Below, in pieces: positions 31,794 to 62,867 of a stretch of 64,000 nt of DNA. The position numbers and the translations under genes are program-made. This stretch comes from Natronococcus sp. A-GB1 (lineage in GTDB: Archaea > Halobacteriota > Halobacteria > Halobacteriales > Natrialbaceae), in contig NZ_JARUKW010000018.1 in assembly GCF_029688845.1 (NCBI RefSeq), forward strand, positions 1 through 64,000. The letters are read 5' to 3'. The first letter of the stretch is position 1. The number at the start of each line of letters is the position of its first letter. The notes beneath the pieces are model-generated. The model was not told the origin of the DNA. It saw only the letters and a program-made list of their open reading frames with translations, and made no database searches.

Positions 31794-31910
31794 CTTGCGT
31801 CACCGGCTGTTACGGTTTTCCTTGGGCGCCATGGTTTCCTCGGCCACGAGATTTCAGCCGGGGATTGTTCCACCGGGCTATCGTGATCCTGAGTTCCGTG
31901 GGTGTACACG

Positions 31911-32921
31911 ATGAGTTTGGAACCGATCGATCCGGAAACGGCGCTGGACATGTACCTGACCGACCGCGATACCGAGGTCACGGAAGCAACCATTTATGCG
32001 CATAGCTCTCGGCTCGGGCACTTCATCAGGTGGTGCCAGAGCAAGGGGATGGAGAACTTGAACACGTTGACGGGCCGGGACCTGCATGAATACCGGTTGT
32101 GGCGGCGGAGTGAAGGCGACCTGTCCGCAGTCACCGAGAAGACACAGATGGACACGCTCCGGGTGTTTGTGAAGTGGTTGGAACAGATCGATGCCGTCGA
32201 GCCGGATCTGCATACCCGGGTGCGGTCACCGATGCTGGACGAACAGGAAAACGTCCGGGACGTGATGTTGGGTTCGGACCGGGCCACTGAGATCCTGCAG
32301 TACCTCGAAAAGTACGAGTATGCCACCCGTCCGCACGTTGTCTTGACGTTGCTGTGGCATACGTTCATGCGGGTCGGTGCAGTCCACGCACTGGATGTGC
32401 CCGATTACGATCCGCACAAGCAGCTGCTGGCGGTGCACCATCGTCCGGAGACAGGGACCCCGATCAAAAACAAGTCCCAGGGCGAGCGATTGGTCGCTGT
32501 CTCCGAGGAGGTCTGCCAGGTACTGGATGACTGGATCGACACCCGGCGACCGGACGTCACCGATGACCATGGCAGACAGCCGTTGATCGCCTCACGGCAG
32601 GGCCGTGCCCATACCACAACGCTTCGGGAAGATTGCTACCGGTTTACGCGGCCGTGTACGGTGACCGGGGAGTGTCCACACGACCGGGTTATCGAGGACT
32701 GCGATGGAACCGACTATCACGATGCATCCCGGTGCCCCTCAAGTGTCAGCCCGCATGCGTTCCGCCGCGGCGGGATCACATACGCGTTAAACCAAGAGTG
32801 GCCGATGAAAGCCGTCAGCGACCGAGCAAACGTCTCTGAAAAGGTCCTCGACAAGCACTACGACCGGCGGACACCAGAAGAGAAAATGGAGCAACGCCGC
32901 CAGTACCTTGAGAACATATAA
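31911..32921 (+). CDS. Tyrosine recombinase (XerC/D-like integrase)
   Basis: 336 residues from MSLEPIDPETALDMYL; an ATG three codons upstream is possible. N-terminal SAM-like core-binding domain (about 10-100) and C-terminal catalytic domain. The catalytic set is visible: Arg154 in FMRVGAVHALDV, His282 and Arg285 in PHAFRRGG, and Tyr317 in LDKHYDRRT. A cysteine-rich insertion between 249 and 275 (PCTVTGECPH, CDGTDYHDASRC) probably binds zinc, as in other haloarchaeal integrases. Its position just inside the tRNA remnant marks it as the enzyme that inserted the element. Confidence 0.92.
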   Translation: MSLEPIDPETALDMYLTDRDTEVTEATIYAHSSRLGHFIRWCQSKGMENLNTLTGRDLHEYRLWRRSEGDLSAVTEKTQMDTLRVFVKWLEQIDAVEPDLHTRVRSPMLDEQENVRDVMLGSDRATEILQYLEKYEYATRPHVVLTLLWHTFMRVGAVHALDVPDYDPHKQLLAVHHRPETGTPIKNKSQGERLVAVSEEVCQVLDDWIDTRRPDVTDDHGRQPLIASRQGRAHTTTLREDCYRFTRPCTVTGECPHDRVIEDCDGTDYHDASRCPSSVSPHAFRRGGITYALNQEWPMKAVSDRANVSEKVLDKHYDRRTPEEKMEQRRQYLENI

Positions 32922-33608: not shown

Positions 33609-35699
33609 ATGGCCACCCGTCTACGGAATCAGGAGAAATCTGCGGGGGGTCGAGCTATGTATGCAGTTCAGTGCAGGACCTCTGTGTATATGGTCAAGAG
33701 CGGAGAACAGCCGTCACCGGTGGAGCTTGAACAGTTACGGGAGACACTGGAATTAGTGGGAGAAACGGAGGACCGAATCGCGAAGCTGTTGCAGGTAGCA
33801 GCGGTCAGCCGGGAACGGTACCGGGCGTTTCTCGCGTTGTACCAAGATCAGGCCCGGCAGATCGAAGCAGCCGGAGTAGCCTATGACTGGTCCTACCCGT
33901 TCGACCGGTATGACGGCCAATTCCGAGTAGGAACTGCACCAGACGGACACCCGATCGGGTTAACCCAGGAACAGTTGAACGAGCACGTACTGGTGGTCGG
34001 CCGGACCGGGGCTGGGAAGACAACGTTGTTCTACAACCTGATGGATGAGTGTACTGGCCACGGACTGCCGTTCTGGGCGTTCGATCTGAAAAACGATTAT
34101 CGGCACCTGGTCCGGCACCGGGACTTGCTGGTGATCAACTGGCAGGACCTGAAGTTCAACCCGTTACAGCCCCCGCCCGGGGTCCCGGTGGCGATGTGGG
34201 CCGAAGTCATCGTTGAGACCTTCGCGCATACGATGGGCCTCCTACAGGGATCGCACGGGTATGTTCTCGGGACACTTCGGGACCTGTATGCGGTATACGA
34301 GCCAGCGGAGACCGGGCAGTACCCGTCCGTCTTCGAGCTGCGGAAGCTGGCGGTGGCCGAGGAGATCCCGTTGGCCTCCCCTCGGTTCCGGTACCGGGAA
34401 CGGTTGATCAACCGGTTGACGTTGATGACCGGGTTCAGCGGTGAAGTGTTCGAATGCAGCCAGGGCTATCCCTTGGCGACAGTATTGGACCGTAACGTGG
34501 TGTTCGAACTGAAGGGTACCAACCAGTACGTGGCCACGTTCCTGATCGAGGCGTTGTTGATGTGGCTGTTCTACTACCGGGATGCTCAGGGACACCGCCA
34601 AGGGTTACGGCATCTGGTCCTGTTCGATGAAGCCAAACACGTGTTTGATGTGAACCGGGAACGCCAGCCAGCGTCCGGGTTTCCCCCGATCGATGATCTT
34701 GTGGGCAAAGTCCGGGAGTACGGGGAAGCCCTGATCGTTGCCGACCACGAACCCTCAAAGCTGACGGACAGCATCAAGGCGAACACGGGAACGAAGCTGT
34801 GGTTGAGTCTGGGCAGCGGGAAGGACACGAGGGAGATGGCACAGACGTTCGGCCTGGACGCGGACGAAACCGCGTTCACCCGGACCCTAGAAAAAGGCGA
34901 AGGTATCGTGACCACGGCAGGCCGGGAACCCTGCCCGATCCAGCTCCCAGACTACACGATCGACAAAGCAGTGACGACCCCGGACCTTCAAGAACAGATG
35001 CAACCAGTGTTAGCCGAGTTCTCGTGGGACCCACGGGTCCAGCCCGAGGTGTTCTGTCAGGCCATCGGCGAACAACCAGACGACTTGGACGAACCCGAAG
35101 ATGAGACGGAGACGGTGGGTGCGGTCGCAGAAGCGTTGCTTGTGAGCATCGAGGAGGACCCGTTCCTGTCCCTGTCAGACCGGTACGAAGCGATCGATGT
35201 CGGGAAAAAGGTTGGATCGGAGGCAAAGGAGGAACTCCGGGCACTGGGATTGGTCCGGGAGGTCGAGGTCCGGACCGGGACCCGGGGCCGGAACCCGAAG
35301 ATGCTGGAGTTGACCCGGCAAGGCCGAACTGTCTTAGAAGATCGGGGATTCACTGTTACGAAGACTGGGCGGCGCGGGATTGAGCATCGGTACTGGCAGC
35401 ACCGGATCAAGGCGTACTACGAGACACATGGCTTCGAAGTAGAAACCGAGTTTGCGACCGACGATGGGCACATCGATGTGTACGCAACGCGGCGCGACGA
35501 AGCTGTTGCCATTGAGGTTGCCCGGAGTCCGGCACACGAACTGGCGAACATCGAAAAGTGCCTGGAGCACGGGGTGGACCGGGTGGAAGTTGCGTACCTC
35601 GATGAAGATGTCAAACAACGGGTCGCAGCAGCGGTTACCGGCGTATTCGGTGACATACCGGACGCGGTGATGTTCGTCCCGATCGCGGACTATGTGTGA
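33609..35699 (+). CDS. HerA/VirB4-type ATPase with winged helix and restriction-endonuclease-like tail
   Basis: 696 residues if the ATG at 33609 is used; 33660 and 33690 are alternatives. Walker A is VVGRTGAGKTTLF, with DLKNDYRHLVRHRDLL after it; Walker B is LVLFDEAKHVF. A helix-turn-helix-like part lies around 490-570 (LLVSIEEDPFLSLSDRY, KEELRALGLVREVEV). The final 120 residues fit a PD-(D/E)xK fold, with EFATDDGHIDVYATRRDEAV then IEVARS. It may move DNA during conjugation, packaging or partition; the nuclease tail would be unusual for a plain VirB4. Confidence 0.8.
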   Translation: MATRLRNQEKSAGGRAMYAVQCRTSVYMVKSGEQPSPVELEQLRETLELVGETEDRIAKLLQVAAVSRERYRAFLALYQDQARQIEAAGVAYDWSYPFDRYDGQFRVGTAPDGHPIGLTQEQLNEHVLVVGRTGAGKTTLFYNLMDECTGHGLPFWAFDLKNDYRHLVRHRDLLVINWQDLKFNPLQPPPGVPVAMWAEVIVETFAHTMGLLQGSHGYVLGTLRDLYAVYEPAETGQYPSVFELRKLAVAEEIPLASPRFRYRERLINRLTLMTGFSGEVFECSQGYPLATVLDRNVVFELKGTNQYVATFLIEALLMWLFYYRDAQGHRQGLRHLVLFDEAKHVFDVNRERQPASGFPPIDDLVGKVREYGEALIVADHEPSKLTDSIKANTGTKLWLSLGSGKDTREMAQTFGLDADETAFTRTLEKGEGIVTTAGREPCPIQLPDYTIDKAVTTPDLQEQMQPVLAEFSWDPRVQPEVFCQAIGEQPDDLDEPEDETETVGAVAEALLVSIEEDPFLSLSDRYEAIDVGKKVGSEAKEELRALGLVREVEVRTGTRGRNPKMLELTRQGRTVLEDRGFTVTKTGRRGIEHRYWQHRIKAYYETHGFEVETEFATDDGHIDVYATRRDEAVAIEVARSPAHELANIEKCLEHGVDRVEVAYLDEDVKQRVAAAVTGVFGDIPDAVMFVPIADYV

Positions 35700-36708: not shown

Positions 36709-37575
36709 ATGGACGTCACCCCGATTCCAGCGGTCTTACGGGCCAAGGCCCAGTGGGTCTGCTGGCGAACGGAGATACGCGATGGGACGCACACGAAGGT
36801 GCCGGTGGATCCGGTGCATGGCGGGTATGCAAGTGTAGCGGATCCGGAGACGTGGGGGTCGTTTACGGCGGCGCAGCGGTGTCGGCGGCGGACGCCGGAT
36901 ATCGAAGGGGCCGGGTTCGTGTTTACCGCAGACGATCCGTTTGTCGGCGTTGATCTTGATGATTGTCGGGAGCCGGCGACGGGTGCGGTTGCGGACTGGG
37001 CGGTCGATGTGGTACGACGCTTGGCGTCGTATACGGAGGTCAGTCCGAGCGGAACAGGGTTCCATGTGCTCGTCCGAGGCCAGGTCCCGCGTGGAGGCAA
37101 CCGGCGCGGGGACCTGGAGATGTACGAGGCGGATCGGTACTTCACGGTGACCGGTGAGCATGTGGCCGGGGCACCGACGGAGATCCGGGACCGCGTTGAG
37201 GCGCTTACAGCGGTGCACGACGCGTATATCGGGGCGGCCGACAGCGAGGAGATCGCCGTGGATGGGGCGTCGGGACAGCAGGTGCCGTTGTCCGATGAGG
37301 CATTACTTGAGACGGCGCGGAACGCAGCCAACGGCGACAAGTTCCGGCGGCTCTGGAACGGGGATACGGCAGGGTATCCGAGTCACAGCGAGGCGGACCT
37401 GGCCCTGTGTAGCCTGCTAGCGTTCTGGACGGGCGGGGATACGGCGCGGATCGAGCGGTTGTTCGCCCGGAGCGGGCTCGTCCGCGAGAAGTGGCGGCAG
37501 CGGCCGGGGTACCGTGAGCGGACGATCCGGCGGGCGGTCCAGGGCTGCAGCGACTTCTACGATCCCGGGCAGTGA
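36709..37575 (+). CDS. Primase-polymerase (AEP), NrS-1 polymerase-like
   Basis: 288 residues. AEP catalytic motifs are visible: FVGVDLDDC gives Asp82 and Asp84, PSGTGFHVLVRG gives the conserved SGTGxH at 114-119, and YEADRYFTVTG the third acidic region near 140. A C-terminal helical bundle (about 225-285) with DLALCSLLAFWTGGDT and RLFARSGLVREKW matches NrS-1-type phage primase-polymerases. No helicase domain follows, so the protein is short compared with plasmid RepPol forms. It is the best candidate for the element's own replication protein. Confidence 0.85.
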   Translation: MDVTPIPAVLRAKAQWVCWRTEIRDGTHTKVPVDPVHGGYASVADPETWGSFTAAQRCRRRTPDIEGAGFVFTADDPFVGVDLDDCREPATGAVADWAVDVVRRLASYTEVSPSGTGFHVLVRGQVPRGGNRRGDLEMYEADRYFTVTGEHVAGAPTEIRDRVEALTAVHDAYIGAADSEEIAVDGASGQQVPLSDEALLETARNAANGDKFRRLWNGDTAGYPSHSEADLALCSLLAFWTGGDTARIERLFARSGLVREKWRQRPGYRERTIRRAVQGCSDFYDPGQ

Positions 37576-44175: not shown

Positions 44176-44346
44176 TCAGTCCTGATGCTGGCGGAGGTAC
44201 CGCAGGATGTAGACGAAAGCGAGTGCCAAGAGGAGATCGCTCCAAAGCGAGGGCGGAGTCTCGTTGTCGCCGGGGTCAGCGGTGAGTTCGGCGGTGCCCC
44301 AGAGTAGTGCGAGGAGGATGATGGCGCCGATGACAGCGTCGATCAT
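44176..44346 (-). CDS. Small membrane protein at the end of the ubiquitin-like operon
   Basis: 56 residues: MIDAVIGAIILLALLWGTAE, then an acidic loop (LTADPGDNETPPSLW) and a second hydrophobic segment LLLALAFVYILRYLRQ. Two membrane helices are predicted by eye. The ATG at 44346 is 9 bases after the stop of the preceding membrane-protein gene, so it is the fifth gene of the run. Too short for many gene finders; codon use and the tight spacing support it. Confidence 0.6.
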   Translation of the reverse strand: MIDAVIGAIILLALLWGTAELTADPGDNETPPSLWSDLLLALAFVYILRYLRQHQD

Positions 44347-44355
44347 GGCCCTGGG

Positions 44356-44793
44356 TTAGGTGCGGAAGTCGTCGATGGTATCGACGTCGTCTTCGAAGTC
44401 GGTGGTAAAGTCGCCTTCTTGGGGTGTAACGGGGTAGTCCTGTTGTGGATCATGGTTCGGTGGGTGCTGGCCTTGGGGCGGACCGGGGCCAGGGTCGTTG
44501 CGGGCAGCGAGTTGGCGCAGCAGGTGGGGTTGGCCGTTGCGTTCGGCGGCACCCCGGACGGTGTAGATGACTGCCGGGAGCAGGAGCGCGAGGATCATCA
44601 TCACGGTCAACGGGGACGAGATGAGCCCGGCGTCGTTGGCGGGTAACAAGACCAGGATGGCGTAGCCGACGCTTGCGAACAGGGACAGGGCGACAACGGG
44701 TTTCGGGAGGAGAGTGGCGATCACGGTCAGGGCAACGATGAGCAGGGCCCACGTCCCGAGAGACGGGATCAGCAGGGGGATCGGTGTAATCAT
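44356..44793 (-). CDS. Membrane protein linked to the ubiquitin-like operon
   Basis: 145 residues. Three or four hydrophobic segments fill residues 5-85 (LGTWALLIVALTVIATLL, VALSLFASVGYAILVLL, LTVMMILALLLPAVIYTV). A Pro/Gln/Asp-rich cytoplasmic tail of about 60 residues follows. The ATG overlaps the E1/JAB stop by four bases (ATGA), so translation is coupled to the conjugation enzymes. This suggests the system acts at, or on, the membrane. Family not recognised. Confidence 0.75.
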   Translation of the reverse strand: MITPIPLLIPSLGTWALLIVALTVIATLLPKPVVALSLFASVGYAILVLLPANDAGLISSPLTVMMILALLLPAVIYTVRGAAERNGQPHLLRQLAARNDPGPGPPQGQHPPNHDPQQDYPVTPQEGDFTTDFEDDVDTIDDFRT

Positions 44794-46229
44794 AGGTGAT
44801 CGAAGTAGGCGGTGACCGCGTCCGGAATCTGGTACACCGACTGGGTGTCAGTCTGTGCAGACCTGGGACGTGGAAGGTCGATCTCAGGATCGTCGGCCGG
44901 GGGAGTGGTGTCGCCGGTTGCGGTGAATCGGGTGCATGTATAGCAGTGGGTGTTGCGGTGGGTTGTGAGGCGGGCCAGGTCGTTGTGGAGGCCGTCGTAG
45001 TGGAGGAAACTGGGCGGGGTGTCGTAGCCGGTGACCAGTTTGGTGAGGGTTTCGGCCGCGAGGCTGGCGGCGATGCCGTTGAGATGGATGACGGCCGGTT
45101 CCGGGCTGAGGGCGGTTTCGGCGATATACCCTTGTTCGACCTCGTCTTCCAGTTCGTCCCGGGAGAGGTGTTCGCGGCGCATTGTTTCGGTGTCGCCGCG
45201 GTCGAGGCAGTCGAAGCAGGCGGTGTCCGTGCCTGGGGCGATGGTCTGGATGTAGGCGGCCATGTCGGTCACCTGGTCGTCTGTGATGTCGATGCGGCTG
45301 CCGGCATCGATGTACGGAGTCAGGTGCTCGGTGGCGTACCGGTTAAGCCACATCCGGGGTGTGATCCGGTCGAGACCGGCAAGGATCACGTCCACGTCTT
45401 GGAGGTACGAGGCGGCGTCTTGGACCGGGGTGGTCACGGCGGTCGTCGCGGCATCCGGGACGCGTTGGACGTACTGTTCCTGGAGGATGGAGACTTTGTA
45501 CGCGCCGGTGTCGCCCTGCCGGGCCTGCGGGATCCGGGGGAGGTTGCTGGACTCGATTTGGTCCGGGTCGATGAACGTTACCGTTTGGACGCCGAGGCCG
45601 GCGAGGTGTTGGGCGAGCAGGCTGCCGATCCCGCCGCAGCCGACGACAGCGACATGCGTGTCGGCCAGTGCCTGCTGCCCCGGTTCGAGGAAACACCGGA
45701 TGTTCCGGTCGTACACCGCTGGATCCACGGTATCGGTCTCTGTCTCGGTTGTCGGCTGTATCTCTGGAGGGTCGCTGAGGGTCCAGGCGCCGATGATCCG
45801 GGCGGGAACCGGGACGGGTGTCTCGGTCGCCGGATCCCATTGCGTGATATGGAACTGGGACGGGGTGAGGACGCCGAACAGGATGGTCAGGTCATCCACG
45901 AGGTCGGTGATCCAGGTGTAGGCGGCGATCGCGTCCTGGTCCTGATCGGTGAACCTGTCCGGGCCGGCAGGATGGCTATGAACGATAAGCGGGTGACGAT
46001 CGGTAGCCAGGCAGTGCTCGATGAACTGGCGATCGGTGGCCTCGGTAACCGCACACCGGGTCGGTGTCATGACGGCCATCTCGTCGGCAGGGACCGGATC
46101 AACGGATGACACGAGCAGGGAATCACCGCTGGCAGAACACGGGCAGAACGCGATGCGTTCCCGGTCGTCTTGGAGTAGCGTGTCCTGGAGCGTGGTGATG
46201 GCGTCAGCGGGGATACGAACAGTGGTCAT
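44790..46229 (-). CDS. JAB isopeptidase-E1 (ThiF) fusion protein
   Basis: 479 residues. The N-terminal domain (about 1-130) is a JAB/MPN metallopeptidase: Glu24, then HSHPAGPDRFTDQD with His84, His86 and Asp97; the usual Ser is Thr94. JAMM enzymes remove or mature ubiquitin-like tags. The C-terminal domain (about 175-435) is E1/ThiF: VVGCGGIGS at 195-203 for ATP, then DPDQIESSNLPRIPQ for adenylation, and zinc cysteines 338, 341, 429 and 432. It starts inside the E2 stop (ATGA). Activation and removal are thus joined in one chain, an arrangement described for some prokaryotic ubiquitin-related operons. Confidence 0.85.
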   Translation of the reverse strand: MTTVRIPADAITTLQDTLLQDDRERIAFCPCSASGDSLLVSSVDPVPADEMAVMTPTRCAVTEATDRQFIEHCLATDRHPLIVHSHPAGPDRFTDQDQDAIAAYTWITDLVDDLTILFGVLTPSQFHITQWDPATETPVPVPARIIGAWTLSDPPEIQPTTETETDTVDPAVYDRNIRCFLEPGQQALADTHVAVVGCGGIGSLLAQHLAGLGVQTVTFIDPDQIESSNLPRIPQARQGDTGAYKVSILQEQYVQRVPDAATTAVTTPVQDAASYLQDVDVILAGLDRITPRMWLNRYATEHLTPYIDAGSRIDITDDQVTDMAAYIQTIAPGTDTACFDCLDRGDTETMRREHLSRDELEDEVEQGYIAETALSPEPAVIHLNGIAASLAAETLTKLVTGYDTPPSFLHYDGLHNDLARLTTHRNTHCYTCTRFTATGDTTPPADDPEIDLPRPRSAQTDTQSVYQIPDAVTAYFDHL

Positions 46230-46696
46230 CGCTGTGGCGCCCGGTAGTCTTCGGGCCGGGAGACGGCCAGATGGCTGGTCGGGTCCGGGACATCAGGGTG
46301 GCTGAATGCGACCTGGAGCAATCCGAGGAGCCAGGGGATGTTGTGTTCGGCTGGATCCCAGTCGAGATCGCGGACGCACCACGGTAGCCAGGCCGGGTCC
46401 GGTGTTTTCGTTAACAGGTGGGTGACCCGGCCCTCGGTGTACTCAAGGCTGCGCGGGATGTAGGCGTACGGCTGGCTGTACGGGTAGCTATCAGGGATCC
46501 GGACGAGTAACGGGGCCACATAGGGTGGGCCACGAGGGACGCCGGGATGACGCTGCCAGCGCCGACGGTCCCGGAGAACCCATCCCTCGGGATAGTGGAA
46601 GTCCCGGAGTTCGTAGGCCTGGAGCTCGGTGTTCCGGGCAACGTAGTAGTTTTTGGCCAGTGCGGTGATTTCCGCGCGAAGTCGTGCTGTGTCCAT
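46226..46696 (-). CDS. E2-like ubiquitin-conjugating (UBC fold) protein
   Basis: 156 residues, E2 size. After an N-terminal helix, the segments APLLVRIPDSYPYSQPYAYI and LPWCVRDLDWDPAEHN, then IPWLLGLLQVAFSHPDVPDP, follow the E2 order: strand with YP-x-x-x-P, active-site Cys, a W-x-P turn, a helix, and a DP-containing tail. Cys107 is the only cysteine in the protein and lies where the catalytic Cys is expected. It would take the ubiquitin-like protein from the E1 and pass it to a target. The gene is 55 bases after the ubiquitin-like gene and overlaps the E1. Confidence 0.75.
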   Translation of the reverse strand: MDTARLRAEITALAKNYYVARNTELQAYELRDFHYPEGWVLRDRRRWQRHPGVPRGPPYVAPLLVRIPDSYPYSQPYAYIPRSLEYTEGRVTHLLTKTPDPAWLPWCVRDLDWDPAEHNIPWLLGLLQVAFSHPDVPDPTSHLAVSRPEDYRAPQR

Positions 46697-46719
46697 TACC
46701 TTGCGTTGGAAATATTACT

Positions 46720-46750
46720 GGTCCGAACGTTCGGACCCCCTGTTTAGGGG
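46720..46750. promoter_or_regulatory. 18-bp palindrome and hairpin between Ubl and E2 genes
   Basis: GGTCCGAACGTTCGGACC at 46720-46737 is a perfect 18-base palindrome. It is followed by a CCCC-TGTTTA-GGGG hairpin that touches the Ubl stop. In the message this would lie between the Ubl and the downstream enzymes. It could stop most transcripts or protect the Ubl message so that Ubl is made in excess, or bind a dimeric regulator. Confidence 0.55.
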
Positions 46751-47068
46751 TTAGCCGAACGGATTCTTTTTCGCGCCAGGCCGGAACGTCAGCCGGTCCC
46801 CGTCGTCCACGTGCTGGTACGGCCGGTCGTCATCATTCAACGCTTTCAGTTCATCGCCGGACCGGAGGTACGCCAGGTTATCCTCGCTCACATCTACCCG
46901 GTCCTTCAGGTCGCGAACCGTCATTTCCTGACTGAGCTGGACGCGGCGGCCTTTCACCTGCACCGTTTTCATATCAGGATCTGTTACCGGCCGTGTCTGC
47001 TTCGGTGGCTGCCCACGGTCCGTCTCCGGCATCGGTAGCCCGCCATCATCTGAGGGTTTCTCTCCCAT
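46751..47068 (-). CDS. Ubiquitin-like beta-grasp protein
   Basis: 105 residues from the ATG at 47068; the longer frame reads through the promoter. A Pro/Asp-rich N-terminal tail of about 32 residues leads into a beta-grasp domain: MKTVQVKGRRVQLSQEMTVR, then DLKDRVDVSEDNLAYLRSGD, then DGDRLTFRPGAKKNPFG. It ends with a bare Gly, the residue needed for E1 adenylation, so no trimming would be needed. A GGTTTATCG box at about 47095 suits a leaderless start. Alternatives are MoaD- or ThiS-like sulfur carriers, but the E2 next door argues for conjugation. Confidence 0.75.
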   Translation of the reverse strand: MGEKPSDDGGLPMPETDRGQPPKQTRPVTDPDMKTVQVKGRRVQLSQEMTVRDLKDRVDVSEDNLAYLRSGDELKALNDDDRPYQHVDDGDRLTFRPGAKKNPFG

Positions 47069-47274: not shown

Positions 47275-47736
47275 ATGGACGACGCCGATACTGGGGACCA
47301 AGTGGCACGGTGGGAGACGGTGGCCGCCCTGTTCACCGGGCTCTCGCATCGGGTTCGGATCGCGATTCTTGAGTCGCTGGCCGCGGATACGGACCGGCCG
47401 CTGACCGCGGTCGGGGACGAGTTCGACTACTCCCGGAGTGCCATCCAGAAACACGTCGAGACACTAATCGAGGCCGACCTGGTGTACCGGCCGCAGGAAA
47501 CGGACCAGCACTACGCGTTGACGCCGTTCGGCCAGTTCTTCGCCGCCTTCCTCGACGAACACAGCGAACCCTTGTACCAGGCGATGCAGCAGGCGGACGC
47601 GGCCGAGGCCGAAGCACAAGCCGAGTTCGAAGACGTGCCGTTGGATGAAGCGACACGGGAGAAAGCGGTAACAAACCGGAAGTGGGATCGGGTTTCTGAG
47701 AAAGGAGTTGAAGAATTAGACAGAGAGGACGGATGA
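47275..47736 (+). CDS. Winged-helix (ArsR-like) transcriptional regulator
   Basis: 153 residues. A helix-turn-helix core spans about 10-85, with VAALFTGLSHRVRIAILESL, then LTAVGDEFDYSRSAIQKHVE for the recognition helix, then LIEADLVYRPQETDQHYALT for the wing. The C-terminal helices (DEHSEPLYQAMQQADAAEAE) probably dimerise it. No metal-binding cysteines are present, so it is not a metal sensor of the ArsR type. Divergent from the ubiquitin-like operon, it is the obvious candidate to regulate it. Confidence 0.8.
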   Translation: MDDADTGDQVARWETVAALFTGLSHRVRIAILESLAADTDRPLTAVGDEFDYSRSAIQKHVETLIEADLVYRPQETDQHYALTPFGQFFAAFLDEHSEPLYQAMQQADAAEAEAQAEFEDVPLDEATREKAVTNRKWDRVSEKGVEELDREDG

Positions 47737-55483: not shown

Positions 55484-58400
55484 ATGGATCCTGCGTCACT
55501 CGGTACGAGTCTTCTTGCGTCTGCTACAGCTCGGCGTGTCGGTCAGAAAGCTCATGAGATGGTCTTCCTGGAGGATCCAGTGGAGACAGCAGCAAGTCGG
55601 GTTGCCGAAAACCATGATGCATTAGAGCCAGAGGTCTTTCCGGCGATTTTTCAGGATGAGCAGGTTGCAGGGTTAGTTGAAGAGTTTGAATCAGGGGGGT
55701 CGGTGATTACACCGAGACAGGTAGCTGACGCGTTTGATGCCGATATGTTGGGATCTGAAGTCGAAGCAACGCCAGAGGAACTGGTTGAGGAGTTTCTGGA
55801 GTATCTTGAACAGGAGATCGGGCAGCAGCCGGAGGTTGGGCGGAAACTGTTACTGTGTTATTCGCAGCGGATCTTCCAGTATGCCACCGAACTTCAGGAG
55901 GGTCAAGAGGAGATACTGTTCGACCTGCGGAAAGTAGCTGGCCGTGTCCATACCGAGAAGGGATATACGATCTTCAGTCCGATAGAGGACCGGTTCGCCA
56001 AACAGCTGGCCGGAGACCATCCCAAGGAGCGATACGATCTACCGTTTTACGGGAGGGAAGACGCCGTCGAGGATTTCTTTGAGTTCGTCGACTCAGATCA
56101 GGCCGTTTTCGTTATCAGTGGGCCTGCCGGCGTTGGAAAAACCCGGCTCGTGGTCGAAGCAGGGCTCCATATCCAAGCCAGTTATCCGAAGTGGCGGGTT
56201 CTGACGACAGATATCCATGCGGGAAACATCGACGACGGCCTCCATGAAATCGACTTCAACGATGAGGAAAAGATCATCTTGTTTATCGATGATGCACGGG
56301 ATGTCGACCAAGTAGAGCGGCTGTTTGCTATCGCAGATCAGTACCGGCCAGATGTCAAACTGGTCTTTACGGAACGATCCTACTTCGTGCAGCCCTTACG
56401 AGAACGTGCGAACCGGTTTGCACTTGGTCATACGGTCTATGACCTTCCTCCACTCGATTCAGACAGCGTCAGGAACGTTCTCCGGGAATACTACCAGATC
56501 ATAGACCCGCCGACCCAGGACTGGATTATCCAGGTAAGTGAGGGGCGGCCCCAGATCGCCCATCTGTTGGCCGATCAGGTTCGCCAGCAGGGATCGGTCG
56601 AAAAAGATCCCCTGGCTGACAGTGAAGTGCTCCAGTGGGTGTTCGATGATACGGTCCGGGACGTGACCGCAGCAGCAAAGCAGCGCAGTGTCGGCGATCC
56701 ACAGAAAGCCGAAGAATATCTCCGGTACTTGGCTGCAGTAGGCAAGTTACAGACCGAAGATACGGCAATGGTGGATGCGTTTTGCGGGGCCATCGGAATC
56801 GACCCGGTTGAGGAGCCACGGTACCGCGCCATTTTGACCGAAACAACCGGATTAGTTGATACATCAGGTAGTCAGCTAACGGTAGAACCCGATGCGTTAC
56901 AGGAATACATCGTCTATACCTCGTTCTTCACCGAAACGGGCCGCGACTACCAGGCACAAGTATTCGACGTGTTCAGCGAACACACCCTGAAAGAACAGAT
57001 CAATACGTTACTCGTTATCGAGCATCGATACGACTGCCGGGACGCCGGCGCTGTCGTCAACGCCGTGGTGACCGACCACATGGATCAGATGACCGAGTAC
57101 GGGTTGGCGGCGCGGACAGAACTTCTTCGCCAGTTCGAGATCCTGGGTGCAGCAAAACCGGTGTGGGGAATAGACCTGGTCCGGGCTGCACTCACCGAGG
57201 AACTCCCTGAAACAGACGACAGCGAGGAACTACAGCGTCGTCTCCTCAAAGCACCGAGTACAGCCGGGAACCTGTGTCTGGCAGCTATCTCTATTCTGCA
57301 TAATGCCCTATCCCAGGAACCAGCGGCAGCAACAGAGCTGTTACTGGAACTGCACGTGCTCTACAGGGAACACAGCGGGATCACCGATGACATCACCCAA
57401 AAGCTGCGGCAAGAACTCGAGCCGGGATGGAGTCGAGACCCGACTACGCAGCGCCAGATGCTGTCCGTTATCAGCACCTATATTCACAACGAAGAGATTC
57501 CGCTCGAGATACGGCTGGAGTTGCTGGATCTCGTCGCAGCCCCGTCCCGGAGCCACGTCAATGATCACTTTGTGGACCCGCTCAACCCAGATGTGGTCCA
57601 ACTCCGGCGAGGTCCTGTTCCAGTTACCGATGACCGCCAAGCCCTCCGCATGGATGCGGTTAACCTGCTGATCGAGGTTATAGAGAGCACCGATTCAGCA
57701 CCCTTGCTACAAAAGGCAACAGAGACACTTACCGGGTTTTACCAGTCACAAGCCCAGCACTTCTATGAAACCGGAACAGTATACAATGCAGAGGAACTGA
57801 CCCGTATCTATGATTTCGCGGTCCAGTACGTTGCGGGGGCAGATAATCTGAATTGTGTTGACCAGTTCAGTAATCTGGTGGAGACAGACCTGGCTGCTGA
57901 CCTGGGAATCGAAGACCATGTTACGGGGCTTGAATCGCAGCTGACTCAGCACGATGGCTACCAGACCCTGCTCCAGATGAAACCTCAGAAGCGGCCACGA
58001 GACGAGCGGGGGCGAATGGAGGAACAGGAAGCCGCGATCAGAGAGTATCTTCAGGGGATTGATGTTACAGTCAACCGAGAGCTATTTACCACCGTTGTGG
58101 AAAACTACTCTGGCACATCGTTCCACCGCTTCTTTAGACTGCTCGGCGCGGAGTGTCCTACTGCGGGGCGAAAGCTGGTGAGCGGCGAAGAGTCGGGGTT
58201 ACAGGACTACCATCCCGATATTGTGAGCGGGTTCTGTACGGCCCGTCCTGATGCGGGAGAAACACTTGTTCAGGAGTTCATTGATAACGGCCGGTATGAC
58301 TTGGGCTGTGCCGGGCTACGGGTGCTTATCAACACGCGGCGGGGATTCGCAGTCAACCAAGTAGAGCAGCTGCTTCAGGAACATCAACCGTACTCAGTGG

Positions 58401-59257
58401 ACTTCACGGTGAACATGGCCAATGTTCTGTACGGACAGTGGCAGGACCACCAGACATGGACGGAATCACAGCTTCTTACCCTTCTTGAGGAGACACAGTC
58501 ATTGGATACTCAGGCTATAACCGCCCTTTTAGAAGTGCTTCCCTGTCGTGATACAACGGCGCTCCAGCACGTGGATGAAGCGATCATCATGGCAGTTATG
58601 GCCTATGCGGAGGAGCAGGACGGATTCAGTACCGCGCCAGGTACCCTTTCTAAGGTTATTGCCGAGGCAGCTGCCCGGTATCCAAAGCAGTTCGTCGAAT
58701 TCTGTCGTGCGCGTTATGACCAAGGAGATATGGGCGGCTCCCTGTTACCGACGTATCTTGATGTTGATACGGCACGTATGCAACGCAGCGATGAATACGC
58801 AGCTGCCGTCGATCAACTGGTAACCCTCATCCTGAATCCGGACTACCATGCCGATCTGTATTCTGATCTCTTAACCGTGTTTCCGACGGACGATGTTACC
58901 ACCGGGCTTATCGAGAGAATTCCTTACTGTGATGCGGCTCAACTTGCTGAAATCGGCGACTACTGCAAACAATTCACTTTGTCCAATGCGATTGAGGAGT
59001 TACTCTTAGCAGTTCTGACAGAGGGCGTCGAGGATCTCCAAGATGCCGATGACGTCCGTGCCAGTGTGCTCATCGCATTAAGTAATGATGGAGAGATGGG
59101 CATGATCTCCGGCGACCGGAACTCGACGGAACTCGAGACGGTTCGCCGCTGGCAGGACGATTCCAGTCTCCCGGTCAGTGTCCGCCGGTTCGCCGAGGAA
59201 GCCGAGCAGTACCTATTAGACGATATCAAGCGGATGAACCAAGCTTTCGACCGCTAG
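55484..59257 (+). CDS. STAND-type P-loop NTPase, large (1257 residues)
   Basis: An N-terminal domain of about 190 residues without recognised fold precedes the NTPase. Walker A is GPAGVGKTRLV at 213-223; Walker B is KIILFIDDARDVDQVERLF. VKLVFTERSYFVQPLRERAN and YDLPPLDSDSVRNVLREYYQ are the following STAND/NACHT landmarks. The C-terminal 700 residues are all-helical and may form a superhelical sensor (LETVRRWQDDSSLPVSVRRF near the end). In bacteria, such proteins often act as pathogen sensors with an effector domain. A GAATATATG box 30 bases upstream gives a leaderless message. Function is inferred. Confidence 0.75.
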   Translation: MDPASLGTSLLASATARRVGQKAHEMVFLEDPVETAASRVAENHDALEPEVFPAIFQDEQVAGLVEEFESGGSVITPRQVADAFDADMLGSEVEATPEELVEEFLEYLEQEIGQQPEVGRKLLLCYSQRIFQYATELQEGQEEILFDLRKVAGRVHTEKGYTIFSPIEDRFAKQLAGDHPKERYDLPFYGREDAVEDFFEFVDSDQAVFVISGPAGVGKTRLVVEAGLHIQASYPKWRVLTTDIHAGNIDDGLHEIDFNDEEKIILFIDDARDVDQVERLFAIADQYRPDVKLVFTERSYFVQPLRERANRFALGHTVYDLPPLDSDSVRNVLREYYQIIDPPTQDWIIQVSEGRPQIAHLLADQVRQQGSVEKDPLADSEVLQWVFDDTVRDVTAAAKQRSVGDPQKAEEYLRYLAAVGKLQTEDTAMVDAFCGAIGIDPVEEPRYRAILTETTGLVDTSGSQLTVEPDALQEYIVYTSFFTETGRDYQAQVFDVFSEHTLKEQINTLLVIEHRYDCRDAGAVVNAVVTDHMDQMTEYGLAARTELLRQFEILGAAKPVWGIDLVRAALTEELPETDDSEELQRRLLKAPSTAGNLCLAAISILHNALSQEPAAATELLLELHVLYREHSGITDDITQKLRQELEPGWSRDPTTQRQMLSVISTYIHNEEIPLEIRLELLDLVAAPSRSHVNDHFVDPLNPDVVQLRRGPVPVTDDRQALRMDAVNLLIEVIESTDSAPLLQKATETLTGFYQSQAQHFYETGTVYNAEELTRIYDFAVQYVAGADNLNCVDQFSNLVETDLAADLGIEDHVTGLESQLTQHDGYQTLLQMKPQKRPRDERGRMEEQEAAIREYLQGIDVTVNRELFTTVVENYSGTSFHRFFRLLGAECPTAGRKLVSGEESGLQDYHPDIVSGFCTARPDAGETLVQEFIDNGRYDLGCAGLRVLINTRRGFAVNQVEQLLQEHQPYSVDFTVNMANVLYGQWQDHQTWTESQLLTLLEETQSLDTQAITALLEVLPCRDTTALQHVDEAIIMAVMAYAEEQDGFSTAPGTLSKVIAEAAARYPKQFVEFCRARYDQGDMGGSLLPTYLDVDTARMQRSDEYAAAVDQLVTLILNPDYHADLYSDLLTVFPTDDVTTGLIERIPYCDAAQLAEIGDYCKQFTLSNAIEELLLAVLTEGVEDLQDADDVRASVLIALSNDGEMGMISGDRNSTELETVRRWQDDSSLPVSVRRFAEEAEQYLLDDIKRMNQAFDR

Positions 59258-59970: not shown

Positions 59971-62166
59971 GTGCGGTTCTATGTTCCGGAATGGGATGAC
60001 TTTGTTGACGCGAACTATGATTTCATCCATGATGAGCACTCATCATTGGATCCCCGTGAGCGGGATATCGCGTATATCTGGGATATTTTCGATCATGAGT
60101 CAACACCGATTGATGGGGTGTTGATTTCCCGGGAGCAGGTTGAGGATACCCCTGCGAAGTTTAACCGGATCACGGAGAACGGGGTCTACGATGCACCCAT
60201 GCTGGATCTCCCAGAGTGGTTGCCAACGATCAGTGACTGCGGTGCGTGGGGGTACAAGGCATTGCCGTTCCCGCCGTACGGCAACAAAGGGATGCTGGAG
60301 TTCTACGAGACACTCAATGTATCCGTCGGTGTTACGATTGACCATCTCGTACTCGGCAGCGGCCACACCGCGCGGTTGTACCTGGATGAACGGGCGTTCC
60401 CGGACGGGTTTACCGCCTCAGATATTCCGGACGCGGTCACAGACGAGATCGATGTGATGACCGATGAATGGCCGACAGAGTGGCCAGCGTACGTCCAGGA
60501 ATATGAGCCATCGATCTGTAGCACCGGGGTTACCGAGTTCGATACGACCGTGTTTGATCAGCCGCTTCCAGCAGTGCTGACCGACCTTGAGGACCATCCG
60601 CACGCGGTCTACCGGGAGGACGATATGTCGTTCCGGTACGATCTGACGTTAGCAAACGCCGAGGAGATGAAAGAGCTCTACGAGGCAGGGAAGTATTCGT
60701 TCCGTCTGATGGTTGCGGTCCAGGGATGGGATCCACAGTCGTATGAACAGGCGACCGAGGAGGTCCTCGATATGGGCTATCAGTACCTCGGGATTGGAGG
60801 GGTTGCTGGCAGCTCCGAGGAAGCAGTCAAAGACTGCGTAGAATCCGTTGGACAGGCGGTGAAAGCGTATGAACGCGAGCACAACACCCGGGTCGATACA
60901 CACGTGTTCGGGTTTGCAAAGACCGGTGCCTTCGATGCGATCGGGCAAGCCGGGATGTCCAGTTTTGACAGTGCCAGTATGCTTCGGGCAGCATGGACCG
61001 GCGGCGAAAACTACCATTTAGACGACACCCAACGATACGATGCAATTCGCATCCGTTATCCTTCAAGCGGAGACGACCTTGGTGATGCCGTAGAGACCGC
61101 ACTTCGCGGACAGGAGATGCTGTATGCGTTGCGGGCGTTCGATAACAACAAATCGATCGTGGACGCACTAACGGAGTGGCACGAAGCGGCGATCCCAGCA
61201 CTGGATCAGCTTGAACCGTACCTGAAAGAGCACCGGCACGATGACCGGTACGATCAGTCGTTGCTCCGCGAGATCAAAGAAGAACTGCGGACCGATTATG
61301 CGTACGGCCGGAAGCTCCGGTCCAACTTCAGCGGCAAGTTCCGTGGCCGGCTCGCGAAACTACTGCGGAAAGACGATCCGGACAGTCCACTCCCGTTCAG
61401 CCAGTACCAAGAGCTGATCGACCAGGTCAGAACGGTCTTCACCGATCGGACACCGACAAAGATTGAGAAGATCAAGGACAAGGAAACGACATCCGGCGAA
61501 TACGGGACCTACAAGCAACTGGTACCCCTCTTAGAGGATTACGTTGAGCATGTTAAGGATGAGGACTTACTGGACGGATACAGGGATTTGTTGCGTCGAC
61601 AACCATGGCGCGAGTGTGGGTGCCCGATTTGTGAAGAGCACGGCATCGAAGTCGCGACCTTCCGTGGAAACAACCGGAATCGACGCCGTGGCTTCCATAA
61701 CACGCACCGGTTCTACGAGCAGTTCGAACGGGCGTTACCGAAGATTGCGGTCCTGACACGGGGCGGGGTCCGTCTCTCCCGGAAGGATTCGGTCGAAACG
61801 TTCCTCCAGGACGATCGAAACCGGTTGTGGTCGCAGGTCCACGATCTTCCTGTCGTGGAAATCGGTGCGGTCACCGCGAACGGAGTACACGAGTGGTGGG
61901 AGACACCGCCAGCCTCGATTTCGTTTGCACCACATGCGATGCAGGCAGTCCTCACAGACTACTGCACCCGGTACCAGACGGTGTACATCGACGGCAGCAA
62001 CTGGACCCCGGATCAGGAACTGATCGATGCTGTTGAAGCGACCGGCTGTGCGGTCCACCTACTCACTGACCCGACCGAGTTACGCACCGCGGTACTTGAC
62101 CAACTGGGCTACGACACAGAGTTCGCTTCGGAACCAATGACCCAGTCCGGGATTACGGACTACTAA
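59971..62166 (+). CDS. DpdA-like transglycosylase (TGT superfamily), 731 residues
   Basis: GTG start at 59971. A TGT-type barrel is indicated by TISDCGAWGYKALPFPPY (Asp89, the position of the first catalytic acid) and FGFAKTGAFDAIGQAGMSSF then DSASMLRAAW. Zinc ligands are Cys549, Cys551 and Cys554 (CGCPIC) and His576 in RRRGFHN, preceded by TFRGNNRNRRR. This CxCxxC...H zinc site is a TGT hallmark, and the FRGNNRNRRRGFHN box is one I associate with DpdA, which inserts 7-deazaguanine bases into DNA. A 150-residue helical insertion is extra. A tRNA enzyme is the alternative, less likely in this context. Confidence 0.75.
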   Translation: MRFYVPEWDDFVDANYDFIHDEHSSLDPRERDIAYIWDIFDHESTPIDGVLISREQVEDTPAKFNRITENGVYDAPMLDLPEWLPTISDCGAWGYKALPFPPYGNKGMLEFYETLNVSVGVTIDHLVLGSGHTARLYLDERAFPDGFTASDIPDAVTDEIDVMTDEWPTEWPAYVQEYEPSICSTGVTEFDTTVFDQPLPAVLTDLEDHPHAVYREDDMSFRYDLTLANAEEMKELYEAGKYSFRLMVAVQGWDPQSYEQATEEVLDMGYQYLGIGGVAGSSEEAVKDCVESVGQAVKAYEREHNTRVDTHVFGFAKTGAFDAIGQAGMSSFDSASMLRAAWTGGENYHLDDTQRYDAIRIRYPSSGDDLGDAVETALRGQEMLYALRAFDNNKSIVDALTEWHEAAIPALDQLEPYLKEHRHDDRYDQSLLREIKEELRTDYAYGRKLRSNFSGKFRGRLAKLLRKDDPDSPLPFSQYQELIDQVRTVFTDRTPTKIEKIKDKETTSGEYGTYKQLVPLLEDYVEHVKDEDLLDGYRDLLRRQPWRECGCPICEEHGIEVATFRGNNRNRRRGFHNTHRFYEQFERALPKIAVLTRGGVRLSRKDSVETFLQDDRNRLWSQVHDLPVVEIGAVTANGVHEWWETPPASISFAPHAMQAVLTDYCTRYQTVYIDGSNWTPDQELIDAVEATGCAVHLLTDPTELRTAVLDQLGYDTEFASEPMTQSGITDY

Positions 62167-62168
62167 CC

Positions 62169-62867
62169 ATGCAGATACTTATCGTCGATCAGTGCTCGAA
62201 AGCGAAAAAAGGCGACGACCGGTACGAACCAGTCGATCCGGAAACGATTGCTACAACCCCACGGACCGATCTCATCAGCCAAGATGATATCCCTGCGGTA
62301 CCGGCCACAGATCTGTATGAAGGCCGGCAACAACAACGGATCACCGAGGCGGTCAACCGGTTCGAGGAAGCCGGTGATGCGGTGGATCGAATCTTTATCA
62401 GTGCCGGGTTCGGCGTAATCGATTCAACAGATCGGCTGCCACCGTACAATATCACGTTCGCGGATATGACGAGCACCGAAGTCGATGACCGGGCCACCCA
62501 ACTCGGGATCTATGAGGATCTCCGCCGCTGCCTCGACACCGGGACATACGATCTGGTGTTTTTCGCCCTGGGCAGTGATTACTACCGGAGTGCCCGGATC
62601 GAAGACCTGATCGAAGCCACGACGGATGCCCCCAGTATCGTAGTGTTCAACCGCGAAGAACTGGCCGCAGAGTATGACCATGTAGTATCCATCTCGGCCC
62701 GAACCGACGACGCAAAAGACCATGGAACGATCGTGATCGCGCTGAAAGGACAGTACCTGAAAAACTTCGCTGCCCACCGCGAAACCGGGAAAACACCCAC
62801 CGAGACCGGCGATGTGAAACGGTACTGTACGGAAGATCCCTACCAGTCCGGTCTCAGCGACTACTAA
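62169..62867 (+). CDS. DUF6884/YaaA-like protein
   Basis: 232 residues, starting 2 bases after the DpdA-like stop. It opens MQILIVDQCSKAKKGDDRYE, then ATDLYEGRQQQRITEAVNRF, then FISAGFGVIDSTDRLPPYNI, the CSKxK...Ay.ly.s...SA.yGll pattern of DUF6884 and YaaA-like proteins. Such domains occur with archaeal and phage TGT relatives and have been proposed to act on nucleic acids. It closes with YCTEDPYQSGLSDY, echoing the SGITDY end of the DpdA-like protein. Coupled expression supports a joint function. Confidence 0.75.
   Translation: MQILIVDQCSKAKKGDDRYEPVDPETIATTPRTDLISQDDIPAVPATDLYEGRQQQRITEAVNRFEEAGDAVDRIFISAGFGVIDSTDRLPPYNITFADMTSTEVDDRATQLGIYEDLRRCLDTGTYDLVFFALGSDYYRSARIEDLIEATTDAPSIVVFNREELAAEYDHVVSISARTDDAKDHGTIVIALKGQYLKNFAAHRETGKTPTETGDVKRYCTEDPYQSGLSDY

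What the first reader, a model, noticed from the sequence alone, without database searches (positions are those of the whole stretch)
44176..47068. Ubiquitin-like conjugation operon on a haloarchaeal integrated element
Gene order on the minus strand is ubiquitin-like protein (ends in Gly), E2-like protein with one cysteine (Cys107), JAB isopeptidase fused to an E1, then two small membrane proteins, with ATGA overlaps at E2/E1 and E1/membrane protein. The parts are seen directly; the enzyme families are established for bacterial operons such as Bil and for Aravind-type JAB-E1 systems. The novel part is the archaeal element setting, the JAB-E1 fusion with Thr in place of the JAMM Ser, and the coupled membrane proteins, which suggest a membrane target such as a surface or virion protein.
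Basis: partly seen in the sequence, partly recalled or inferred. Interest (0 to 1): 0.9.

Follow-up and report, generated by a model that had tools for sequence, protein, structure and literature searches.

The report
Archaeal membrane-linked ubiquitin-like conjugation operon
A salt-loving archaeon carries, on a mobile element, a five-gene kit that looks able to attach a ubiquitin-like tag to proteins at the membrane; it is a distant cousin of bacterial 'Bub' operons, but its conjugating enzyme has a cysteine where the bacterial ones examined all have a serine.

Summary
Window 44176-47068 (minus strand) encodes a beta-grasp Ubl ending in Phe-Gly, an E2-fold protein with a single Cys (Cys107), an N-terminal JAB fused to an E1, and two small membrane proteins, with ATGA overlaps at E2/E1 and E1/membrane protein.

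The closest known system is the bacterial polyUbl/E2/JAB-E1 operon (type 6e of Iyer 2006, now 'Bub'), not Bil. The best solved match over the whole JAB-E1 is Citrobacter BubCD (E=8e-43), so the fusion itself is not new.

New here: (1) Cys107 aligns with the invariant Ser of bacterial Bub E2s. It is Cys in 14/14 haloarchaeal E1-linked E2s, Ser in 12/12 bacterial E2s and Ser in 6/6 of another haloarchaeal clade. Surplus or E1-less haloarchaeal E2s have Cys in 0/7. (2) None of the 26 aligned relatives' E1s has the crossover-loop catalytic Cys, so the E2 Cys would be the only thioester site. (3) Membrane linkage recurs in 12 of 14 relatives, as a downstream membrane gene or as a hydrophobic tail on JAB-E1. 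(4) A divergent wHTH gene is conserved.

Best reading: a regulated, mobile-element-borne, membrane-tethered Ubl conjugation and deconjugation module of Bub ancestry with thioester chemistry, possibly anti-virus. Targets and activity are untested.

The parts
46751..47068 (-). Ubl modifier (105 aa): disordered N-terminus, beta-grasp core about residues 33-97, C-terminal Phe-Gly (F104-G105)
   Evidence: (F104-G105 invariant in A6), AF2 model, Foldseek
46226..46696 (-). E2/UBC-fold conjugating enzyme (156 aa), single Cys107 in motif W..WCVRD..WDP
44790..46229 (-). JAB (JAMM) isopeptidase fused N-terminally to an E1/ThiF domain (479 aa); BubCD homologue
45937..45980 (-). JAMM segment HSHP...FTDQD (H84, H86, T94, D97); Thr replaces the family's Ser
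44940..45713 (-). E1 (ThiF) adenylation domain with GxGGxG, two CxxC zinc pairs (C338/C341, C429/C432), no crossover-loop catalytic Cys
44356..44793 (-). Membrane protein 1 (145 aa, three hydrophobic segments, C-terminal acidic motif DVDTIDDFR), ATGA-coupled to JAB-E1
   Evidence: (37% identity to the L024 protein)
44176..44346 (-). Membrane protein 2 (56 aa); homologue at the same place in Halovivax (L032)
47275..47736 (+). Divergent winged-HTH regulator, conserved at the same divergent place in at least five relatives; probable operon regulator
31902..32921 (+). Tyrosine integrase at the left edge of the element that carries the operon

Best explanation
The operon is a mobile-element-borne Ubl conjugation/deconjugation module descended from the same stock as bacterial Bub (type 6e) operons. 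Proposed cycle: the E1 domain adenylates the Ubl C-terminal Gly (Phe-Gly end) with ATP. Having no catalytic Cys of its own, it passes the Ubl straight to E2 Cys107 as the only thioester. The E2 then transfers it to an amine or hydroxyl on a target. The JAB domain cuts the linkage and, in relatives whose Ubl carries extra residues after Phe-Gly, matures the precursor. The membrane proteins (or a hydrophobic JAB-E1 tail in sister species) hold the machinery at the membrane, and the divergent wHTH protein controls expression. The likely role is defence of the element and host against viruses or rival elements at the membrane. Shown here: homology, order, folds, residue conservation, recurrent membrane genes, element context. 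Inferred: every catalytic step, the membrane tether, the regulation and the defence role.
For: JAB-E1 profile matches Citrobacter BubCD over both domains, E=8e-43. E2 AF2 model (pLDDT 85.7) matches E2s, prob 0.99, and BubB 9eae_C with TMt 0.65. Halo E2 against bacterial Bub E2: hhalign prob 95, E=2e-8, Cys on Ser. Active column: 14/14 Cys (halo, E1-linked), 12/12 Ser (bacteria), 0/7 Cys in surplus or E1-less E2s. In L030/L104, E2 Cys, Ubl Gly (ends FR) and JAB-E1 are all missing together. Ubl model matches Ub-like folds; Phe-Gly conserved with 0-27 trailing residues. E1 catalytic Cys absent in 14/14 halo and 12/12 bacterial rows; the genome's own UbaA has it. Membrane link in 12 of 14 relatives. 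Divergent wHTH conserved. Element carries Dpd-like, GmrSD and BrxC/D-like genes.
Against: No biochemical data. The E2 Foldseek E-values are above 0.001, so the fold call rests on probability, profile alignment and topology together. T94 in place of Ser may weaken or abolish this copy's JAB. Some hydrophobic JAB-E1 tails fall below a standard hydropathy cut-off, and the Halobellus/Natrinema/L029 membrane proteins are barely alignable with the window's. The Haloglomus and L026 operons have no membrane partner. No PADLOC defence model covers the operon as such (one search gives only generic E1-E2 hits), and bacterial Bub is reported as not yet shown to protect against phage (PMC13373217).
Confidence: 0.62

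Rival explanations
1. Same conjugation module, but its role is housekeeping or stress control of the element or host membrane (for example conjugation pili, vesicles or S-layer proteins) rather than defence.
For: Bub operons are not shown to protect against phage and may be stress responses (PMC13373217). The element also encodes an S-layer-like protein and HerA-like ATPases. The module recurs on plasmids.
Against: Sporadic distribution (18 of 391 class genomes with any E2 of this kind) and neighbouring defence-type genes fit defence better than housekeeping.
Confidence: 0.4
2. The proteins act in sulfur transfer (tRNA thiolation or molybdopterin), as with ThiS/MoaD and UbaA.
For: The E1 domain belongs to the ThiF family, and haloarchaeal UbaA is known to serve both sulfur transfer and protein conjugation (PMC3403918).
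Against: E2 and JAB are built in; the Ubl ends in FG, not GG, and is not a ThiS/MoaD match. The genome already has two other ThiF proteins and five ThiS-family carriers elsewhere. The E1 lacks the Cys of UbaA-type enzymes.
Confidence: 0.04
3. E2 Cys107 is not catalytic; as proposed for type 6e, the E2 is a scaffold and E1 delivers Ubl directly to targets or to a hydroxyl.
For: Iyer 2006 judged 6e E2s inactive for lack of Cys; bacterial homologues have Ser at the position.
Against: Cys is invariant in every E1-linked E2 of the clade (14/14) and lost in every surplus or E1-less copy (0/7), as expected for a catalytic residue. In the model it lies straight after the strand at 103-106 and before the helix at 120-132.
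Confidence: 0.2
4. This copy is decaying or regulatory only: the JAB is impaired (Thr94) and the operon is maintained mostly for conjugation.
For: T94 is the exception at a nearly invariant Ser, and this Ubl needs no trimming because it ends exactly at FG.
Against: All metal ligands and the upstream Glu are intact; all ORFs are open with normal coding bias.
Confidence: 0.2

Closest known systems
Bub operons / type 6e polyUbl-E2-JAB-E1 operons (Iyer 2006, PMC1779556; Gong 2025 and Ye 2026, cited in PMC13373217)
   Same: Gene order Ubl, E2, N-terminal JAB fused to E1; BubCD homologous over both domains; E1 without crossover-loop Cys; mobile, sporadic distribution; an adjacent regulator is common
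   Different: Archaeal; single-domain Ubl ending FG; E2 Cys instead of invariant Ser; no DUF6527/metal-binding fourth gene; membrane proteins or a hydrophobic E1 tail instead; wHTH regulator unlike the Cap regulators named in that paper
Bil operons (BilABCD)
   Same: Ubl, E2, E1 and JAB in one operon, antiphage in bacteria
   Different: In Bil, E1 (BilD) and the JAB DUB are separate proteins; here JAB and E1 are fused and the best structural match is BubCD
CBASS Cap2/Cap3 (types 6a-6c)
   Same: E1, E2 and JAB activities
   Different: Cap2 fuses E2 and E1 and works with a CD-NTase; here E2 is separate and no CD-NTase was identified nearby
Haloarchaeal SAMP/UbaA system
   Same: Haloarchaeal Ubl conjugation with an E1-like enzyme and JAMM proteases
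   Different: No E2; UbaA has the crossover-loop Cys; those genes are separate in this genome
Caldiarchaeum Ub-E1-E2-RING-Rpn11 operon
   Same: Archaeal operon with Ub, E1, E2 and JAMM; CsUb is among the Foldseek hits of the Ubl
   Different: Eukaryote-like E1 and RING E3; no JAB-E1 fusion or membrane genes

Membership tests
Bub / type 6e | JAB domain fused to the N-terminus of E1 | tested here: met
   BubCD match over profile positions 4-399, E=8e-43; JAB ligands and ThiF domain
Bub / type 6e | Ubl gene (one to three Ub-like domains) upstream | tested here: met
   Single beta-grasp Ubl
Bub / type 6e | Separate or Ubl-fused E2 fold with Ser (no Cys) at the active position | tested here: not met
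   E2 fold is met, but Cys replaces the invariant bacterial Ser
Bub / type 6e | Fourth gene: metal-binding protein Y / DUF6527 | tested here: not met
   The next genes encode membrane proteins without Pfam match; bacterial relatives have DUF6527
Bub / type 6e | E1 lacks crossover-loop catalytic Cys (feature derived here from the alignment) | tested here: met
   14/14 haloarchaeal and 12/12 bacterial rows
Bub / type 6e | Conjugation activity | not testable with these tools
   Needs biochemistry
Bil | Separate BilD (E1) and JAB DUB | tested here: not met
   JAB and E1 are one polypeptide
CBASS type II/III (Cap2/Cap3) | CD-NTase in the operon and fused E2-E1 | tested here: not met
   E2 is separate; no CD-NTase among the genes scanned; PADLOC gives only the generic E1 region of E1-E2 models
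SAMP/UbaA or sulfur transfer | GG-ending ThiS/MoaD-type Ubl and E1 with catalytic Cys, no E2 | tested here: not met
   FG end, no ThiS match, no Cys, E2 present
E2/UBC fold | UBC/UEV topology with Cys after the beta-meander | tested here: met
   AF2 model and Foldseek prob 0.99 to E2s, though E>0.001; UEV of Vps23 by profile, E=0.0014

The most novel reading that the evidence does not exclude
Within one homologous family of Cys-less-E1 conjugation systems, the E2 nucleophile has switched between Ser and Cys: bacteria and one haloarchaeal clade use Ser, while this haloarchaeal clade and a group outside the haloarchaeal class but in the same phylum use Cys. That would make this a one-thioester, membrane-tethered ubiquitin-like pathway encoded by archaeal mobile elements, and in five relatives the E2 is accompanied by a Cys-less second E2, as with a Ubc13/UEV pair.
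Probability: 0.45. Interest if true: 0.8.

Novelty: new variant of a known kind. Interest (0 to 1): 0.63.

Why it matters
Ubiquitin-type conjugation normally runs through two Cys thioesters. Here is a natural series of homologues in which the E1 has none and the E2 has either Ser or Cys, so the question of how thioester chemistry entered or left the ubiquitin pathway becomes testable by a single residue swap in a genetically tractable group. It would also be an E2-dependent Ubl system of mobile elements in haloarchaea, which are so far known for E2-less sampylation, and its repeated link to membrane proteins gives a concrete place to look for targets.

Tried and rejected
Single-protein scans of viral and genome collections found no relatives, and the A3 scan of viral contigs gave only short or distant ThiF matches, so no viral copies are claimed. 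The E2 alignment A1 was too diverse for a pattern scan. A RING/E3 gene was looked for: zinc-finger ORFs follow the operon in Natrinema and G176, but only a sub-threshold FLZ match was found and there is no homologue in the window, so no E3 is claimed. The HerA-like ATPase at 33609-35699 was considered as part of the module because it recurs nearby, but it is spread more widely (26 of 295 genomes), with a second copy in this contig, so it is treated as an element gene. Sulfur transfer was rejected. The Halovivax JAB-E1 was misframed in the tree input and dropped; its E2 and membrane genes were used. Ye 2026, Gong 2025 and Chambers 2024 could not be read. My recollection that Bub forms Ser oxyesters is therefore a lead, not evidence.
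Full report
Observation. The five minus-strand genes are as described. The Ubl ends in Phe-Gly, the E2 has one cysteine (107), JAB-E1 overlaps E2 and membrane protein 1 by ATGA, and base composition by codon position supports all five as genes. The host is a haloarchaeon of 4.5 Mb. It belongs to Natrialbaceae, since relative G247 of the same family has the same contig (861,699 bases, matching coordinates) as the Natribaculum luteum plasmid.

Families. Pfam sees only ThiF clearly (E=2.4e-42) and a weak JAB; the Ubl and E2 have no significant family match in Pfam, NCBIfam or PADLOC. They were identified by relatives and structure. The AF2 E2 model (pLDDT 85.7) has only E2/UBC folds at the top of the PDB ranking (prob 0.99; E-values not below 0.001), including Citrobacter BubB with TM 0.65 by target length. 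A profile of the E2s finds the UEV domain of Vps23 (E=0.0014; weaker, 0.097, when the Cys-less E2s are left out). The Ubl model is a beta-grasp (core pLDDT about 85-90) with Ub-like domains, NEDD8, SUMO, Caldiarchaeum ubiquitin and bacterial multi-ubiquitin proteins among its hits.

Relatives. The order Ubl-E2-JAB-E1 recurs in Natribaculum, Natrinema, Salinigranum, Halobellus, Halovivax, Haloferax marisrubri, Halolamina, Haloglomus, Halorientalis and unnamed haloarchaeal genomes. By sequence alone the E2 is found in 10 of 391 sampled class genomes; by profile, which also catches a more distant clade, in 18 of 391. Bacterial homologues on plasmids are annotated multiubiquitin, E2/UBC, ThiF, DUF6527. 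These are type 6e of Iyer and colleagues (PMC1779556), the set now called Bub (PMC13373217). The haloarchaeal JAB-E1 profile finds Citrobacter BubCD over both domains at 8e-43. The JAB-E1 fusion is therefore an old and known architecture.

What is different: the E2 nucleophile. Profile-profile alignment places Cys107 on the serine of the bacterial WQRWSRH motif (prob 95, E=2e-8). In a joint alignment the column is Cys in 14/14 haloarchaeal E2s of complete operons, Ser in 12/12 bacterial E2s, Ser in 6/6 of a separate haloarchaeal group, most with Ubl fused to E2, and Cys in 3/3 proteins from genomes outside the haloarchaeal class but in the same phylum (loci). Seven haloarchaeal E2s that are a second copy in an operon or lie where no JAB-E1 was found have S, S, E, E, D, D or G. 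In the two loci without JAB-E1 (L030, L104) the Ubl also ends in Arg instead of Gly. Joint loss of Gly, Cys and E1 is what a conjugation cascade predicts. Iyer and colleagues judged the 6e E2s inactive for lack of Cys; this clade does have it.

What is different: the E1. The only cysteines conserved in all 14 haloarchaeal rows are the two CxxC zinc pairs. The crossover-loop Cys seen in this genome's own UbaA (motif DCATTG) is absent in all 14 and in all 12 bacterial rows. Direct transfer from Ubl-AMP on E1 to E2 Cys107 is the simplest mechanism; this is inference.

Ubl processing. Phe-Gly is conserved in the aligned operons with JAB-E1 and is followed by 0 to 27 extra residues. The variable tails suggest that JAB matures the modifier in relatives. 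In the window the Ubl needs no trimming, and its JAB has Thr for the otherwise conserved Ser; whether it is active is open.

Membrane link. A small membrane protein follows JAB-E1, often overlapping it, in the window, L023, L024, L015, L029, Halobellus and Halovivax. In a supported sister clade (Salinigranum, Natribaculum, Halorientalis, Haloferax, Halolamina; 100/100) JAB-E1 itself ends in a hydrophobic segment, mostly flanked by basic residues (only two of the five pass a strict hydropathy cut-off). Only the Haloglomus/L026 pair lacks both. Twelve of 14 thus have a membrane link, in two alternative architectures. The tails of several membrane proteins share an acidic C-terminal motif like D-x-D-x-I-E-D-x-Y-R, a possible docking site; this is a lead only.

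Regulation and setting. A divergent wHTH gene (47275-47736) lies at the same place upstream in L023, L024, L025, L029 and L032, as bacterial Bub operons have their own Cap regulators. The element begins at the integrase at 31902 where GC falls from 0.66 to 0.54 and extends to the contig end. Its cargo includes DpdA/DpdC-like, BrxC/D-like, GHKL-HNH and GmrSD genes, so a defence island is plausible; nothing ties the operon itself to defence directly.

Verdict. The identification as a Ubl conjugation operon of Bub ancestry is about 0.9 likely; a Cys107 thioester about 0.7; a membrane-located machine about 0.65; defence as its main role about 0.45. It is filed as a new variant, not as a Bub operon proper, because two defining features were tested and not met: Ser in E2 and the DUF6527 gene. 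The Ser-oxyester chemistry of Bub itself is from memory, since the paper (Ye 2026) could not be read here.

Noticed in passing
window 59971-62867, 62991 to L065: DpdA-like (PADLOC 4e-74) and DpdC-like (1.5e-8) genes followed by another TGT-like ORF and a BrxC/D-like ATPase: a candidate 7-deazaguanine DNA modification cluster on the same element. TGT-type genes also lie beside relatives L016 (with QueC/D/E, FolE) and L029.
   Followed up: partly
L065:3437-5752 and L065:5831-8419 (contig 67437-69755, 69828-72419): GHKL ATPase with HNH-associated repeats next to a GmrSD-type (type IV restriction) gene, further defence-like cargo.
   Followed up: partly
L105, L106, L107, L108, L110, L111: A second haloarchaeal group, most with Ubl and E2 in one polypeptide (with an N-terminal coiled-coil-like stretch) and a Ser-type active site, next to a JAB-E1 of about 560-615 aa.
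   Followed up: partly
L017, L027, L028/L033, L034, L029: Operons with two E2 genes (four also with two Ubl genes), one E2 with Cys and one without, recalling a Ubc13/UEV pair.
   Followed up: partly
L030 and L104: Ubl-E2 pairs with no JAB-E1 found nearby, Ubl ending Phe-Arg and E2 without Cys, next to a transglutaminase-like ORF in L030 (by eye): a repurposed or decayed pair.
   Followed up: no
L015:11087-11257 and L029:7329-7631: Homologous small Cys-rich (zinc-finger-like) proteins right after the membrane gene in two operons; possible partner, no E3 family match.
   Followed up: partly
window 33609-35699 and contig 72445-74481: Two HerA/FtsK-like ATPase copies on the element; homologues lie near the operon in L023, L024, L029 and L032 but also occur in many genomes where no such operon was found.
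   Followed up: yes
window 36709-37575: NrS-1 polymerase-like protein (HBD domain, 4e-24), probably an element replication gene.
   Followed up: no
window 55484-59257: 1257-aa nSTAND NTPase, defence-like and without a PADLOC match.
   Followed up: no
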